Origin: Nothopassalora personata
Lineage: Eukaryota; Ascomycota; Dothideomycetes; Mycosphaerellales; Mycosphaerellaceae
DNA: 64,000 nucleotides
Reading direction: 5' to 3'
Assembly: GCA_033816765.1 (NCBI GenBank)
Contig: CM066298.1
Coordinates: 2,356,001-2,420,000 of the forward strand
The position numbers and the translations under genes were made by a program. This document shows, piece by piece, positions 5,055 to 59,599 of this stretch. Each line of letters starts with the position of its first letter. Position 1 is the stretch's first letter. The notes under the pieces were generated by a model. The model worked only from the letters and a program-made list of their open reading frames with translations, did no database searches and was not told the DNA's origin.

Positions 5055-5184
5055 GGACTCGCGAATGCTACGCGTATAGTAGCCGAATATAAGGCGTCCG
5101 CGAAGACGGTATAAGCCGGCGGAAGGATCCGCGAAGGCTACGCGTATAGTAGTCGAATATAAGGTACCTACGAAGGCCGTATAA
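5055..5184 (+). repeat. Two tandem units of about 70 bp after the chromodomain
   Basis: The stretches beginning at 5055 and 5125 repeat each other over about 60 bases (shared core GCTACGCGTATAGTAG). The complete element has only one equivalent of this segment near 57880-57930, so the duplication is private to this copy. Confidence 0.7.
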
Positions 5185-5588
5185 GGCGCTAAAACAAGGG
5201 TATAGGTTATACATTTAGGCCTTAACCCTTCGGTAGCTAGATATAAGGACCTTACCCTTTAGACATAACCTCCTCTTTTTACTAATAACACGGGAGGAGG
5301 CCTATCCGATAGTATCTACATTAACGGTAGCCTCTACCCCAATAGTAAAATTAGCTATAACCTACATATAAGACACTAACCTATAGTATGTTCTATCGGA
5401 CTAAAAGGCTCGCTTACTTAGTTAAGTAAACACCCCCGATAGTAATAACATTAGAGAGGGAGGTAAGGAGAGAGAAGAGTAGAGAGAAGAGTATTTATTT
5501 TAAAAATAAACTTTTATAGGCGCGCTACGGCGCTACGTAGATAAAAGATAGGCGCGTAGTAGGCGGCTAATATACGTAGAGCGCGCGA

Positions 5589-52448: not shown

Positions 52449-52819
52449 TAATATAATATTAAGTAGTCTACCTCCTATCTATGTACTACGAGTCTATACT
52501 TCCCTCTACTTTTTCGGTCTTAGCTACCTCGTAGATAGCTCGATAATAAGCCTATTTCTCGGTGCCTTTATACGCTAGTTGTCGTTAGGTAGACTCTAAA
52601 GTAATAGCTACGAGTCTAGCTACGAGTCTAGCTATGTAATTATCGAAGTACTAGTTGCTACTATAGACTCGCTTAAGGCACTAGTTGCTACTATAGTCTC
52701 GCTTAAGGACTCCTTCTTAATCTCTCTAATTTAACTCGTAGCTAGACTCGTACGCTCTTCCTTTACCTTCTTAACCGATACTTCGCTAGCTAACGTACTT
52801 ACTAGCTTATTGCCTAAAC

Positions 52820-53016
52820 TGTAAGGGGTAGCCTAGTATCTAACCCTTACATATAGCCTTATATATAACATACGGTCGCGACCGGCTACTAAGCCGTACG
52901 TGACACGCATAAGTACACCTTACGACGCGCGATGCGTCTAGAATAAAAGGTAAGAATTAGTTTATCTACGACTAGTAGGTCGTAGGCGTGCTATATATTG
53001 CGACATCCCCTTAACA
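52820..53016 (+). repeat. 5' LTR of the nested chromovirus
   Basis: 197 bp, TG...CA ends intact; preceded by the TAAAC target duplication. Confidence 0.95.
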
Positions 53017-53059
53017 GTTCTAATTCTTCTCTTCGTTACAATCTATACACGCTATAGAG

Positions 53060-56000
53060 TCCGAACGCGACGATAGTAGCGCTACGCCTACGGCTCCCCT
53101 AAGCCCTAGAGCCTAGTAACAAGCGAGGCGTGTAGCCTTAGTCGTAAGGAGGGATGCCCTTCGGGTAGAGGTTAAGGAGAAGGAGATGTAGAGGGAGATT
53201 AAATAGTTAGAGATCTTACGGGACGTAAGCGTGCCGCCGGCGGACCCTTAGGGCGAATCCGGCGGAGAACTATCCCCTACTCCCCCTCCCCCCCCTCTAT
53301 CTATAGTAACTAACGATAATATCGTATCTCGAGGCGCGGTCGTATCGCATGCGACACGTTTGCGTCTTAAAGAACCTACGCCTTTTAGAGGGGACTCGAT
53401 TAAGAAAGTACGGGTATTCCTAAGGGAGCTCTCTCTTATCTTTGCCCTCTTAGGCGGCACGTATACGACGAACGAGTTAAAGGTCCTATATAGGGTTATG
53501 TACCTAAGCGAAGAGGCAAGTAAGCGATAGCACGCTAACTATAGCGTCCTTAACCTTAAAGGGTATATATACTAGGACTTTAAGGAGTTCTATCGAGACG
53601 TATACGGTAATCCTATAAACCGCGTACTTAACGTAATGTTAGAGTATAAGGCGGTGAAATAGAAGGATAACTAGATAGTGCGTTAGTTTACGACTAAGCT
53701 AGATATTATAGAGGATTAGTTAGGGGACTATACGGAGGCGTAACGCGTACGATATATGCTCGCTAAGCTTACGCCTAGCCTACGGTCCGTAATCGTTAAG
53801 TTTTATAACATCCTAATAACTAGAGAGGAACTAGTAATCCTAGCTTCGCGCATTAAAAGCACGGAGCGTAGTAGCGGAGGGCACGACCGCGGGCAGTATA
53901 GTCACCGTAGGCGAGAGACTAAGGGCGACTAAGGGCGAAGCGATCGTAGCTCGAAGTAGTAGAAGTATAGTTAGGCGTCGCGCGACCCGGGTACGAGTTA
54001 CTAGCGGGACGCCGGCGGATCGTCTATAACCTTTAATAGGACTAAAGCGGAGTACTATAGATACTATAAGAAGGGTTACATTAAGACGGATTGCCCGAAC
54101 AGGCACCTATAGAAGGACCGTAGCGCGTAAGCGGTTCGTAGGGTAGACGCTACGAAGGCTCTAACTAAGAAGGGTAGCGACTAGGGAAAAGGTAGAGGAC
54201 TAGAAGTAGGTCGCTCCTAAGTCCGAGTTTTCCTAAAGTCGACCCCTTAAGGCGAGTAGATATGTGTCTATCGTAGCGACTAGGGAAAAGGTAGAGGACT
54301 ATAAGTAGGTCGCTCCTAAGTCCGAGTTTTCCTAAAGTCGACCCCTTAAGGCGAGTGGATGCGTGTCTAGCGCGTCACTTATAAGGCGCAGTCGAGACTC
54401 GTAAGGGCTTTCGCGAGGCTACGTTTCTCCTAGATAACTATACGGATCTTAGCCTAGTATCGTATAAGTATATACTCCGATATTAAATGTAACCTATTAA
54501 TAGGGCAAGGCTACCAAAGTTAGAGTCGTATACGCATAACCTAGGGTATTGCTACGGCGCCTTTGCGGTTCGGCTACGACTCGCTAATAACGCGGGAGTA
54601 GAGCGCGTAAGTAACGCTATCTACTACGCGGTGCCTATAGGTAGGCCATTAGTAATTTTAGGTAGACCCTAGCGGCATCGTAATCGGATAGTAAAGGCCG
54701 ATAAGGATAACTAGTAGTACTACGGTGTAGAGACGCCTACGGTTTAGTAGCGTAACGCACGCGAGTTCCTTAAGGATCTCGAGAGCTTAAAGTAGGTTTA
54801 TGCGATAAGTGTTCGGGCTATTACTATAGTAGTACCTAAAGGAGAGAACCCCTCGTAGCCTAAAGAATTTGTAGACTTCCGAGATGTATACGCACCTAAT
54901 AAGTAGGCGAAGCGTAAGATGCCCGACGGGGTTAAGCATACGATTAATCTCGTTAAAGGAAAGAAACCCCCTTTTAAGCCGCTATACCACTAGTCCTTAA
55001 CTAAGTTAGAGGCCTTAAAGGAGTACCTTACGTAAGTAATAGAGAAGGGGTAGATTAGGCGGTCCGTAAGCGAGGCGGGTGCGCCTATCCTGTTCGTACT
55101 AAAGAAGAATAGTACTCTTAGGCTCTATGTTAATTATAGAGGCCTAAATGAGATTATAGTAAAGAACCGATACCCCCTACCCCTAATTAGCGAGACGCTA
55201 GATAGGCTGTTAGGTTCTAGGTTCTTTACTATAATCGATTTAAAGGACGCCTACTATCGTATCCCTATTAAGCGAGGCGATAAGTAGAAGACTACGTTTC
55301 GCACGCGATACGGACACTACGAGTACCTAGTAATGCCGTTCGGGTTAACTAACGTACCAGTAACCTTTTAAGGGTATATTAATAAGGCGCTAACCGGCTT
55401 AGTTAATAACATTTACGTAGTCTACCTAGATGATATCCTTATCTATAGCGAGACGCGTAAGGCACACGTACGAGCCGTACGCGCGGTACCAGAGAGGCTA
55501 CGAAAGTTTGCCCTATTCGTAAACCCTAAGAAGTGTCACTTCTTCTAGGAGAGTATAGAGTTCCTTAGGTTTATCGTAAGCGCCGTAGGCGTGTCGATAG
55601 ATAGGAGCAGGGTAGCCGCTATCGAGGAATAGCCTATACCTACGACCTTTTATAAGGTCTAGTCCTTCCTTAGGTTTTGCAACTTCTACCGGCGTTTTAT
55701 AGAAGGATACTTAAGGGTCTATAAGCCCCTAACGGACCTACTAAAGGGATCTAAGGACGGTAAGAAGTACGGCCCTCTTACGTAGACCTTAAGCAAAGAG
55801 TAGGCGTTTCGATAGCTTAAGGCCGGATTCTTAGGTATACTAATACTTAGGCACTTCGATCCTACGCTACGTACGCGAGTTGAGACGGATACCTTAGGTT
55901 TCGCGATCGTAGGTATTATATCCTAATTGTTTAGTACTAAGTAGCATCTAATTGCCTTCTATTTACGTAAGATAATACTAGCCGAGTGCAACTACGAGAC

Positions 56001-57943
56001 GCACGATTAGGAGCTACTTATAGTAGTTAAGGCTTTTAAGCATTAGAGGCTATACTTAGAGGGCGCTACGTATACGGTGCGAGTACTAGTCGACTACGCT
56101 AACCTATAGGGCTTTATAACAGTAAAGTAGCTAAATAGGCGGTAAGCTCGATAGGCTACGTTCCTATAGTCTTTTAATTTTATAGTAGAGCATCGGCCGG
56201 GTAAGACTAACCTAGCCGACGCGCCTTCGAGACGTAGTAACTACGTAGCTATAACGTAATAAACTTCGAACTTACTACCTACCTTATAAAGTAAGCTGTC
56301 TTTCTAGAAGGAGTCTCTAGAAGGGATAAGCGAGCCGACGGTGAAGCGCGTACTTACTACCTACGAGGCGATATAGGGCAATATAGGCGCGGCGATAGTA
56401 GTGCGGAGAGGTAACCTTCCCTATTAAGACAAGCCGTCTTTACTAGTAGTAGTATGCGCTATAGTAATATAGGGTTAAGCTTATAGCTCGACGGGTAAGT
56501 TAATCCTACTCTTAATAAAGATCGCGTAGTAGTAAGACGACTAGTATGTCGTATGCTTAGCGTAGGCGCTAAGCGCGAGGGACGCTAAGGGATAGCATAT
56601 AAAGGATAACCTTATATACTACGGAGACGCGATCGTAGTACCTAGGGATTACGCAATTAGGTCGCATCTAATTCGTATATACTACGACGACGTCCTCGCG
56701 GGTCACTTTAGAAGGACTAAGACTAAAGAGCTATTACGACGTAATTATTAGTAGGACTCACTTAGTACGGACGTAAAACAATACGTCTAAGCCTATAGAA
56801 CCTACTAGGGTTCGAAGGCGAGGCGCCATCGACCCTACGGCGAGCTATAACCGCTTCCTAGACCGGAGCGACCGTAGTAGGAAATTACCATGGATTTTAT
56901 TACGGACCTACCTCTAAGTACGCGAGCCGGTTACGTATATAATGCGATCCTAGTAATAGTCGATCGCTACTTAAAAATAAGCTTATACATCCCGACAACG
57001 AAGACTTACATAGCCGTAGAGCTTACGAGGCTCCTACGAGACGAAGTCGTGCGACACTATAGTGTCCCGTTAGGTATAGTAAGCGACCGAGGTCCGGTCT
57101 TTACTAGTTAGTTTTAGAGTAACTTCTACTTCGAAGCGCGTGTAAAGCGTAAGCTATCTACGGCCTTTTACCCTTAGACTAACGGCTAAACTAAGAGGGT
57201 AAACTAAACCCTCGAACAATACCTTCGTTATTACTATAGTAACAATTAAACTAAGTAGGCTAAGTGACTTATAGTTGCTAAATTCGCAGCTAATAATAGC
57301 ATCTACCTAACACTACGGATAAGTCCGTTCGAAATAGCGTACGGTTAGCGACCTAAGATTACCCCTACACTAACTAGATCTCGAGACGAGACCTAGGGGG
57401 GGGAAAGTACTAGCAGCGGTAATAGCTACGAGTCGCATGCGAAAACTACGCGCTACACTCGAGGAGCGATAGAAGGCTATAGTAGAAAGCTAGGCTCGCT
57501 ACTATAACAAGACCTACTAAGCTAAGACCTACCGCGTAGGTAACTTAGTCCTATTATTAACGAAGAACCTTAAGTTAGCAGTGCTAAAGAAGAAGATAGG
57601 TCCGAAGTTTATCGGCCTATACCGTATTACGGACGCTATCGGTTCGTAGGCGTACCGCCTAGCGCTACTAGCCGACTTAAGGCTCTATAACGTCTTCTAT
57701 GTCTCTCTCCTCGAGCCGTATATCGGTAGCGATAAGGATGGACCCGTACCCCCTCTAGCTAATAAGGACGGAGAGTATAAGGTAGAGGCAGTACTAGATA
57801 GGCGTAAGCGTAAGGGTAAGCTACAGTATCTAGTCTAGTAGAAGGACTAGCTAGAGGAGTATAATAGCTAGGAACCGGCGGAGGGCCTCACGAATACGGA
57901 TCGTATAGTAGCCGACTATAAGGCGTTAAGGAGAAGTAAATAA
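53060..57943 (+). pseudogene. Chromovirus gag-pol, RIP-inactivated
   Basis: One frame can be followed with many TAG/TAA interruptions. The Gag body includes EPTPFRGDSIKKVRVFLREL near 53370-53430. A zinc knuckle at about 54050-54110 reads YYRYYKKGYIKTDCPNR, where the two leading Cys and the His appear as Tyr through G-to-A or C-to-T changes. Reverse transcriptase keeps VYLDDILIYS (YLDD at 55423-55434) and FRTRYGHYEYLVMPFGLTN. RNase H ends EHRPGKTNLADAPSR near 56190-56230. Integrase shows MDFITDLPLS (56890) and IVSDRGPVFTS (to 57111). A chromodomain (DGEYKVEAVLDRRKRKGKLQ) lies near 57768-57830, and the frame ends at TAA 57941-57943. Chromodomain integrases target heterochromatin. The protein cannot be made from this copy. 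Confidence 0.92.
54174..54371 (+). repeat. In-frame 99-bp tandem duplication between Gag and protease
   Basis: The segment 54174-54272 is repeated at 54273-54371 with a few changes (shared start GTAGCGACTAGGGAAAAGG). The period is exactly 33 codons, so the duplication would have kept the frame. Confidence 0.8.
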
Positions 57944-58077
57944 GACTAGCACTAGAGCATAAACAAAACTTTTCTTAACTATAAACAAAATAAAAGCTAA
58001 AGAGTAGCGCGCCTACTAGGGGCTACGTAGAGTAGTAGTAGGCGAGGAGCCCGCGAGTAGCGTGTAAGGCGAGCGCC

Positions 58078-59012
58078 TCAGTTATCGTTACGTAGTAACT
58101 TAGGTAAGAATACCTAGTCGGCGGCGGTAGTATCGATGTTCTACGCCTATAGGAACTAGGACTACGGTTAGTAGGGTACACTTAGGCGAGGAACATACAA
58201 CTTACGGCGCGGCCGAGTTCGAATAGCCTATTAAGGGCGCGGTTCTACTCCTACTAGAGCGCGAGGGCTTCGGCGGCGGGGGCGGCGGTAGTAGTAGCGG
58301 CGGCGGAGGTACGTATACGGGTCTCCCTGGCACGCTTATGCTTATAGGCATTAAACTGCCTAATAGCCTATAGGAAGGGTTAGCCGAAGCATAGGGGACG
58401 TACTAGAGCCCTCCCCCGCGAGTAGTAGTCGACTCGTACGAGCGAAGTAGCAACTTACCTCCTTAATGTCGTTGCCTAGCTAGGTATATAGGCGGATCTG
58501 CTCTACTAGCTCCTACTGCTAGAGGTCTATAGGCGCCTAGCCTATTATAGCCGTAAGGAAGTCGCGCTAGGACCGCGCGGCGCGTAGGCGGCTTACTAGC
58601 GAGGCGATAGCGTAGCTAGTATTAGGCACGTAGCTGTGTTTACTACGCCTATAGCGGCTACACTTCTTTAGGAGCTCGCCGGTAGTAACACTATTACAGT
58701 CATCGGCCTCGTCTAGTAAGTAGTTAGTATACGAATCGTAGGCGACACGCGTAGAGACTTACCCCTAACGAAGTACGGGAGGCACCGTATGTACATATTA
58801 ATTCTCTACGAGAGCTTAGTAGCTAGCGAGGGCGTTAGTAGCTACGAGGGTAATGCTAGTCGCTTACGACTACTAGGCGTTCTAGGGGCGTCGCGTACTA
58901 GAGCCGCCTAGCGGCGCTCGTCTTCTACGGCGCTAGTAGTGCTATCGCTACTAGTACTACTAGAGGAGGCGGAGCGGCTAGAGAATAGCGGCGAGGAGGG
59001 CACGGTAGACAT
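58078..59012 (-). pseudogene. Opposite-strand spliced accessory gene of the chromovirus, copy 2
   Basis: On the minus strand an ATG at 59010-59012 opens four exons: 58763-59012, 58459-58712, 58206-58367 and 58078-58146. Introns are 50, 91 and 59 bp, all with GTAAGT donors, a CTAAC branch site and TAG acceptors. The joined 735 nt stay in frame for 244 codons and end at TGA. Every internal stop is TAG, at sites where Trp or Gln would fit. The protein starts Ser-rich (MSTVPSSPLFSSRSASSSS), then has a likely helical core (GELLKKCSRYRRSKHSYVPN; SLVSRLRAARS) and a basic-then-Ala-rich part (FNAYKHKRARETR), ending LPKLLRNDN. No family is recognised. It faces gag-pol tail to tail, and its promoter must lie in 59013-59512. 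The same gene is in the copy at 5589-6460. Confidence 0.78.
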
Positions 59013-59315
59013 AATGATAATAATAATGCTAGCGAGGCGCTTACGATAATAGTACGGTACGGGTACGTAGTAGTAGTGTAGCGAAGGTAATAAGCTAGGG
59101 AACGTACTAGAGAATAGGGCTAGGTTAGGCTAGAGTTTTATGCCCCTAACTAGCTACGTCGGTATAGTAACTAAGCCTTACTTACCTATACCTACATAAC
59201 GACACGTACGTAACCCGTATATAGGCCGTATAGTAACTATAGTTCTAGAAGTTCGTAGGAGCCTCTACGTAGTAACTAGCGAGCTAAGGACAGCTCGTAC
59301 GGGAGAGGAGGCAAT

Positions 59316-59512
59316 TGTAAGGGGTAGCCTAGTAGCTAACCCTTACATATAGCCTTACATATAATATGCAGTCGCGACCGGCTACTAAGCCGCACGTAAC
59401 ACGTATAAGTATACCTTACGACGCGCGATACGTCTAGAACAAAAGGTAAGAATTAGTTTATCTACGACTAGTAGGTCGTAGGCGTACTATATATTGCGAC
59501 ATCCCCTTAACA
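59316..59512 (+). repeat. 3' LTR of the nested chromovirus
   Basis: 197 bp, same ends as the 5' LTR; followed by TAAAC (59513-59517). It also lies upstream of the opposite-strand gene and could serve as its promoter. Confidence 0.95.
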
Positions 59513-59599
59513 TAAACCTTTCCCTATAAACACTAAATTCTACTATCGAGAGGGGGCTCTAAACCCCGTTAGCTACGGAGACGAAGACGAAGAGGTTTA

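What the first reader, a model, noticed from the sequence alone, without database searches (positions are those of the whole stretch)
58078..59012. A spliced gene on the opposite strand inside a Ty3/gypsy chromovirus
Seen: four minus-strand exons (58763-59012, 58459-58712, 58206-58367, 58078-58146), three introns with GTAAGT donors, CTAAC branch sites and TAG acceptors, and a frame kept over 245 codons. The only internal stops are TAG, where RIP would destroy Trp or Gln codons. Known: LTR elements normally carry only gag-pol, and an intron in the sense strand would be lost on retrotransposition. An antisense gene can keep its introns because the genomic RNA is not spliced on that strand. Inference: this chromovirus lineage carries a captured or evolved accessory gene driven from its 3' end, possibly opposing host silencing or controlling copy number.
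Basis: partly seen in the sequence, partly recalled or inferred. Interest (0 to 1): 0.88.

Follow-up and report, generated by a model that had tools for sequence, protein, structure and literature searches.

The report
Spliced antisense gene in fungal retrotransposon
A mutation-damaged fungal jumping gene carries, on its opposite strand, a second gene cut into four pieces by three introns; related elements in the same genome keep the gene and its introns, so it was probably once a working part of the element, though what its protein did is unknown.

Summary
At 58078-59012 (minus) four exons join into a 244-codon frame whose only internal stops are 13 TAG. It lies between the chromodomain end of pol and the 3' LTR of a complete, RIP-altered Ty3/gypsy chromovirus (LTRs 52820-53016 and 59316-59512, TAAAC on both sides). 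The host is a fungus near Fulvia/Dothistroma. In 47 of 47 further copies examined, every exon keeps its frame and all three acceptors are intact. Other families in this genome, one 53% identical in protein, keep the three intron positions. Transversions, which RIP does not make, follow codon position 2<1<3 in 9 of 10 pairs (7 significant; pairs overlap). So this was very likely a spliced, protein-coding gene under selection. [quoted passage not shown] A conserved three-intron version I did not find described; no homologue was detected. Function is inferred: a basic, perhaps nuclear, accessory factor. Against a simple picture, introns diverge no faster than exons except in one disrupted copy, and the protein changes faster than pol. 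Expression was not testable.

The parts
52820..53016 (+). 5' LTR (197 bp), preceded by TAAAC (52815-52819)
   Evidence: direct repeat
55099..57165 (+). pol: reverse transcriptase, RNase H, integrase zinc-binding domain; integrase core match below Pfam cut-off
   Evidence: Pfam with stops as X
57539..57922 (+). end of pol: SH3_Tf2-1 domain (57539-57721) and chromodomain (57776-57922)
   Evidence: Pfam above cut-off
58763..59012 (-). antisense gene exon 1 (ATG at 59012)
   Evidence: ATG in 46 of 47 other copies
58713..58762 (-). intron 1 (50 nt; GTAAGT, CTAAC, TAG)
58459..58712 (-). antisense gene exon 2 (254 nt; same length in all 8 aligned sequences)
58368..58458 (-). intron 2 (91 nt; 63-91 nt in the 7 aligned sequences that have it whole)
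58206..58367 (-). antisense gene exon 3 (162 nt; 162, 168 or 171 nt in the 7 aligned sequences that have it whole)
58147..58205 (-). intron 3 (59 nt in all 7 aligned sequences that have it)
58078..58146 (-). antisense gene exon 4 (ends TGA)
   Evidence: stop TGA (14) or TAA (33) in 47 of 47 copies
59013..59315 (-). leader between 3' LTR and antisense ATG, with a purine-rich tract next to the LTR; presumed promoter or 5' UTR
   Evidence: position only; tract seen by eye; promoter role inferred
59316..59512 (+). 3' LTR (197 bp), followed by TAAAC (59513-59517); the LTR pair differs by 11 transitions and 1 transversion

Best explanation
The element is a complete, RIP-altered chromovirus with a second gene on the opposite strand between pol and the 3' LTR. 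Shown: four exons, three introns with standard splice signals, the same anatomy in other element families, and a coding-type substitution pattern. Follows from how LTR elements copy themselves (established knowledge): the genomic RNA is sense, so antisense introns are not removed and pass unchanged to new copies. Inferred: the antisense mRNA starts in the 3' LTR or in the roughly 300-base leader beside it, is spliced in the nucleus, and ends near the short gap after pol. Inferred, less sure: the product, a small basic protein (36 K/R against 23 D/E, stop positions not counted), is a nuclear accessory factor that helps the element's expression, integration or resistance to silencing, as has been proposed for other antisense genes of LTR elements.
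For: Gene model exact. 13 TAG and no other internal stop; 0.002 of shuffles match. 47 of 47 copies keep frame in all exons; acceptors 47/47, branch sites 47, 47 and 46 of 47, donors GT in all. Distinct length changes are multiples of 3 in 12 of 12 exon cases and 0 of 6 intron cases. A second family, 40 scored copies, encodes a 53% identical protein with introns at the same places; families F and G likewise, E for the first intron. Transversions at codon positions 1/2/3: window against D 40/193, 28/193, 55/192 (third against first two p=0.0034); F against G 7/193, 3/193, 16/192 (p=0.0026). Second-position to fourfold transversion ratio 0.14-0.60 in seven pairs, pol 0.25. Family F has the chromovirus pol beside the gene. 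Chromodomain.
Against: Introns do not diverge faster than exons: window against D 37/197 intron and 123/578 exon transversions; D against F introns are slower, 3/172 against 36/578, p=0.018. Only D against E shows faster introns (31/135 against 30/396), where intron 2 of the E copy is disrupted. Third-position excess is not significant in 3 of 10 pairs (D-G, D-E, window-L047), and pairs share sequences. Fourfold against second position is significant in 2 of 7 pairs and not for window against D (12/53 against 28/192, p=0.21). Many in-frame length changes lie in triplet repeats. Every match listed for the gene carries stops (capped lists). L055 has a 4-nt longer exon 1 and no ATG, L053 no ATG, L047 an insert in exon 4. 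No homologue in the collections searched (one uL2 match at E 0.001 over 33 basic residues judged chance). No RNA evidence. A nuclear role rests on charge and analogy.
Confidence: 0.6

Rival explanations
1. The antisense transcript acts mainly as RNA: it pairs with the genomic RNA and feeds small-RNA silencing or limits copy number, and the frame is secondary.
For: Antisense transcription of LTR elements can act this way (PMC7264820, passages); introns are about as constrained as exons, as if the RNA or DNA itself mattered.
Against: Codon-position pattern and frame-keeping length changes point to selection on a protein; splicing would remove part of the complementary RNA.
Confidence: 0.15
2. 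A host gene or another mobile element's gene was captured once, with its introns, in an ancestor of these families and is kept as a passenger.
For: Spliceosomal introns are normal in host genes; capture in antisense orientation is a way to keep them.
Against: No host copy or homologue found: every match listed carries TAG stops (150 candidates scored in each, not all listed); no hit in two protein searches (about 8000 candidates scored in each). Kept frame and codon bias argue against a mere passenger. Origin and role are separate questions, so capture may be true together with the best explanation.
Confidence: 0.2
3. Chance frame in RIP-altered DNA, with splice-like motifs picked by eye.
For: RIP makes TAG common; one sense frame of the joined exons is also free of TAA/TGA.
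Against: Same exons and introns in a family 53% identical in protein; transversion pattern; 47 of 47 copies in frame.
Confidence: 0.02

Closest known systems
brtn, antisense gene of the Boty element of Botrytis cinerea (Zhao et al. 2011, Virology 417:248; paper not held, known here from passages of PMC7264820, PMC8365987 and PMC4227169)
   Different: Protein relationship and intron content of brtn could not be checked. Host classes differ (Botrytis a Leotiomycete, recalled; here a Dothideomycete, inferred).
Plant antisense additional ORFs: Grande gene23, RIRE2, Retand (TRP28 domain), PvRetro13
   Same: Same place and orientation; conserved in families; function unknown, nuclear in Grande (PMC7264820, PMC11963269, passages).
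   Different: No TRP28 match here. The word 'intron' does not occur in either paper's main text, so introns in the plant genes are not mentioned there.
HBZ, antisense gene of HTLV-1 (PMC10186651, passages)
   Same: Antisense gene near the 3' end of a retroelement, expressed from the 3' LTR, with a spliced mRNA form.
   Different: HBZ is a bZIP protein, no bZIP match here; in the passages read, its spliced and unspliced forms differ only at the 5' end.
Antisense homing endonuclease genes with spliceosomal introns in rDNA group I introns (PMC9548176, passages)
   Same: Mobile element whose opposite-strand gene keeps a small spliceosomal intron and is expressed separately.
   Different: Different element type and protein.

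Membership tests
Ty3/gypsy chromovirus | two LTRs with target-site duplication | tested here: met
   197-bp LTRs, TAAAC on both sides
Ty3/gypsy chromovirus | RT, RNase H, integrase in that order | tested here: met
   Pfam order; integrase core itself below cut-off (17.6 against 32.6 bits), integrase zinc-binding domain above it (33.3 against 25.5)
Ty3/gypsy chromovirus | chromodomain at pol C-terminus | tested here: met
   PF00385, 27.7 bits against cut-off 25.1
Ty3/gypsy chromovirus | primer binding site and placement in an RT tree | not tested
   no tree built
Antisense additional ORF between pol and 3' LTR | position and opposite strand | tested here: met
   chromodomain ends 57922, gene 58078-59012 minus, LTR starts 59316
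Antisense additional ORF between pol and 3' LTR | conserved between families with coding constraint | tested here: met
   weaker than in pol
Antisense additional ORF between pol and 3' LTR | present in most copies of the family | tested here: inconclusive
   copies were found with the gene region itself, so copies lacking it would be missed
Antisense additional ORF between pol and 3' LTR | transcribed | not testable with these tools
   no RNA data
Boty brtn | homologous protein | not testable with these tools
   brtn sequence not held; protein searches found no relative
Boty brtn | same intron pattern | not testable with these tools
   2011 paper not held; citing passages do not say
Retand TRP28 protein | Pfam PF04195 | tested here: not met
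   no match; RIP damage lowers sensitivity
HBZ-like bZIP protein | bZIP domain | tested here: not met
   no match; RIP damage lowers sensitivity

The most novel reading that the evidence does not exclude
The introns are not passengers but part of the design. An antisense, intron-bearing gene can be expressed only from nuclear DNA through the splicing machinery and cannot be translated from the sense genomic RNA, so it is a built-in strand gate. The protein behind it changes faster than pol, as would a factor in a contest with host silencing or RIP. Introns as constrained as exons would fit this.
Probability: 0.2. Interest if true: 0.8.

Novelty: new variant of a known kind. Interest (0 to 1): 0.6.

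Why it matters
Antisense genes of LTR elements are known, but their functions are not. A multi-exon version with three introns, kept in more than one family and in high copy number, gives a marker of antisense expression that is easy to test: these spliced junctions cannot come from the sense genomic RNA or from DNA contamination. It also adds a protein family with no relative detected here, one that changes faster than pol while keeping its frame, which is what a factor working against host defence might do.

Tried and rejected
Processed (intron-less) copy: one place matched the joined protein across the first junction in one frame (C2:2453353). It proved to be a 2-nt deletion inside intron 1, not intron loss. 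A like match of family D (C1:5082997) spans 462 bases for 136 residues, room for the intron; it was not fetched.

A suspected further family near L049 was followed to L052, in which the gene was not found; dropped. A stretch of L050 that looked like another element held no copy of the gene. Searches for relatives in proteins, PDB, Pfam, IMG/VR and prokaryote genomes gave nothing credible; the uL2 match was judged a chance match of a basic patch, and a Pfam match at E 0.18 in one of five members was ignored. The 2 kb beside family G (L058) showed no pol by blastn or Pfam; Pfam on one strand of L059 also gave nothing, its pol was seen by blastn.

In the codon tests the poorly aligned start of exon 1 and all gapped columns were left out; the pol comparison covers only 181 codons at the integrase-chromodomain end.

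Structure prediction was not run.

Full report
What is there. The window is 64 kb of a 54.5-Mb fungal genome (G000, contig C12). The best protein matches of a neighbouring transporter gene are from Fulvia fulva (89%) and Dothistroma septosporum (85%), so the host is a relative of these (Mycosphaerellaceae, name recalled). At 52820-59512 lies a full LTR element: two 197-bp LTRs differing by 11 transitions and 1 transversion, and TAAAC on both sides. With stops read as X, Pfam finds reverse transcriptase, RNase H, integrase zinc-binding domain, an SH3 domain and a chromodomain in order; the integrase core match is below cut-off. It is a chromovirus by domain content. CA and TG stand at 0.28 and 0.21 of expectation and TA at 2.05 in the element, against 1.15-1.23 and about 0.5 in two gene regions of the window. 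That is the mark of RIP.

The antisense gene. The joined frame has 244 residues, 13 TAG, and no TAA or TGA inside; of 2000 shuffles of the joined exons a fraction of 0.002 was free of TAA and TGA. One sense frame of the joined exons is also free of them, so I did not rest on this.

Copies of the same family. A DNA search returned 40 near full-length copies at 95-100%, window included, and one match at 69% over half the length, which is family D below (only 40 candidates are scored, so counts are lower bounds). Among 48 copies aligned, distinct length changes in exons were multiples of three in 12 of 12, in introns in 0 of 6, in the 5' flank in 6 of 12, in the 3' flank in 0 of 1; several exon cases lie in triplet repeats. 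In 47 distinct copies covering at least 1300 of 1363 bases all four exons keep frame in 47. Acceptors are TAG in 47 for each intron. Donors: intron 1 GTAAGT 44 and GTAAG with a following deletion 3; intron 2 GTAAGT 47; intron 3 GTAAGT 37, GTGAGT 9, GTGGGT 1. Branch sites CTAAC 47, 47 and 46. ATG 46; stop codon 47. TAG stops number 12-16 per copy; 2 copies have a TAA, none a TGA. These copies were found with the gene region itself, so copies without the gene would be missed.

Other families. Beside one copy lies another element, family D, with 40 scored copies of its own. Its antisense gene has introns at the same three places and a protein 53% identical. L047 (close to the window family), L055 (close to D), L056 (E), L054 (F) and L053 (G) add to this. 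In the eight aligned sequences intron 1 has GTAAGT in 8 of 8, intron 2 in 5 of 8, intron 3 in 5 of 7. The exceptions are F and G, with ATAAGT at both, a change of RIP type, and L056, which is disrupted after exon 2. CTAAY lies 15, 15-16 and 25 bases from the intron end in every intron present. Exon 2 is 254 nt in all eight; exon 3 is 162, 168 or 171 nt in seven. Not every copy is in order: L055 has a 4-nt longer exon 1 and no ATG, L053 no ATG, L047 an insert in exon 4. Family F has the chromovirus pol directly beside the gene, 72.5% identical over 2 kb; for family G no pol was found in the 2 kb taken.

RIP-proof test. RIP makes transitions, so I counted transversions by codon position. In nine pairs between families the order is always position 2 < 1 < 3; the tenth pair, window against L047, does not show it. 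The third-position excess has p below 0.02 in seven of ten pairs; D-G (0.07), D-E (0.23) and window-L047 (0.38) are not significant. Pairs share sequences; window-D (40/193, 28/193, 55/192; p=0.0034) and F-G (7/193, 3/193, 16/192; p=0.0026) share none. Second-position against fourfold transversion ratios are 0.14-0.60 over seven pairs, significant in two of them (D-G, F-G), against 0.25 for 181 codons of pol between window and D. Between window and D the protein changes faster than pol: second positions 28/192 against 6/181, p=0.0001; fourfold sites 12/53 against 7/58, p=0.21.

Results against the simple story. Introns should drift freely, but window against D shows 37/197 in introns and 123/578 in exons, and D against F 3/172 against 36/578 (p=0.018). 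Only D against E has faster introns (31/135 against 30/396), where intron 2 of the E copy is disrupted. Either the introns carry signals, or the exons change fast, or leaving out gaps in short introns hides change. Fourfold against second position for window against D alone is not significant (p=0.21).

Relatives elsewhere. Two protein searches, about 8000 candidates scored in each of a 5.8-billion set that includes fungal records, gave nothing at E up to 10; the first may have been swamped by low-complexity words, the second used trimmed rows. PDB, Pfam, IMG/VR and prokaryote genomes gave no credible relative. Fungal genomes as such cannot be searched here, and RIP damage lowers sensitivity.

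Literature. [quoted passage not shown]), which names Boty of Botrytis and Sclerotinia. PMC8365987 (passages) takes brtn from Zhao et al. 2011 for BcGypsy1 and notes that the gene is missing from the last annotation of B05.10. PMC4227169 (passages) reports Boty-like elements with a CHROMO domain and brtn. The 2011 paper is not held. Retand's TRP28 genes: PMC11963269 (passages). HBZ with spliced antisense mRNA: PMC10186651 (passages). Antisense homing endonuclease genes with spliceosomal introns: PMC9548176 (passages). Passages of PMC5408684 and PMC3248453 added nothing on antisense introns. In the listings I saw no report of an intron-bearing, conserved antisense gene in a fungal LTR element; subscription papers are mostly not in that library, and whether brtn has introns remains unknown to me.

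Verdict. It is a new variant of a known kind: an antisense accessory gene of a chromovirus, here with three conserved introns and a protein without a detected relative. Its function is open; a nuclear accessory role is my best inference.

Noticed in passing
window 57165-57539: The pol domains before and after this stretch lie in different reading frames, so this copy's pol has a length change here besides its stops.
   Followed up: no
L042 (C2:2448000-2457500): Two look-alike element copies lie in opposite orientation about 2.3 kb apart, like an inverted duplication; both have the same 2-nt deletion in intron 1 in the alignment shown.
   Followed up: partly
L031 3610-3630: A copy of the window's family ends just upstream of the start codon of a family D antisense gene, as if inserted there; this would give the order of insertion.
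   Followed up: no
L050 about 5060-5480: A stretch that looks rich in CA/TG words, as if spared by RIP, lies beside RIP-altered element copies; possibly a younger element (by eye).
   Followed up: no
window 54174-54371: A 99-bp tandem duplication inside the gag-side region of the element.
   Followed up: no
L031 and window, antisense gene against pol: Between the same two families the antisense gene is more diverged than pol at second codon positions (28/192 against 6/181, p=0.0001), which could mean fast evolution or exchange of the module.
   Followed up: partly
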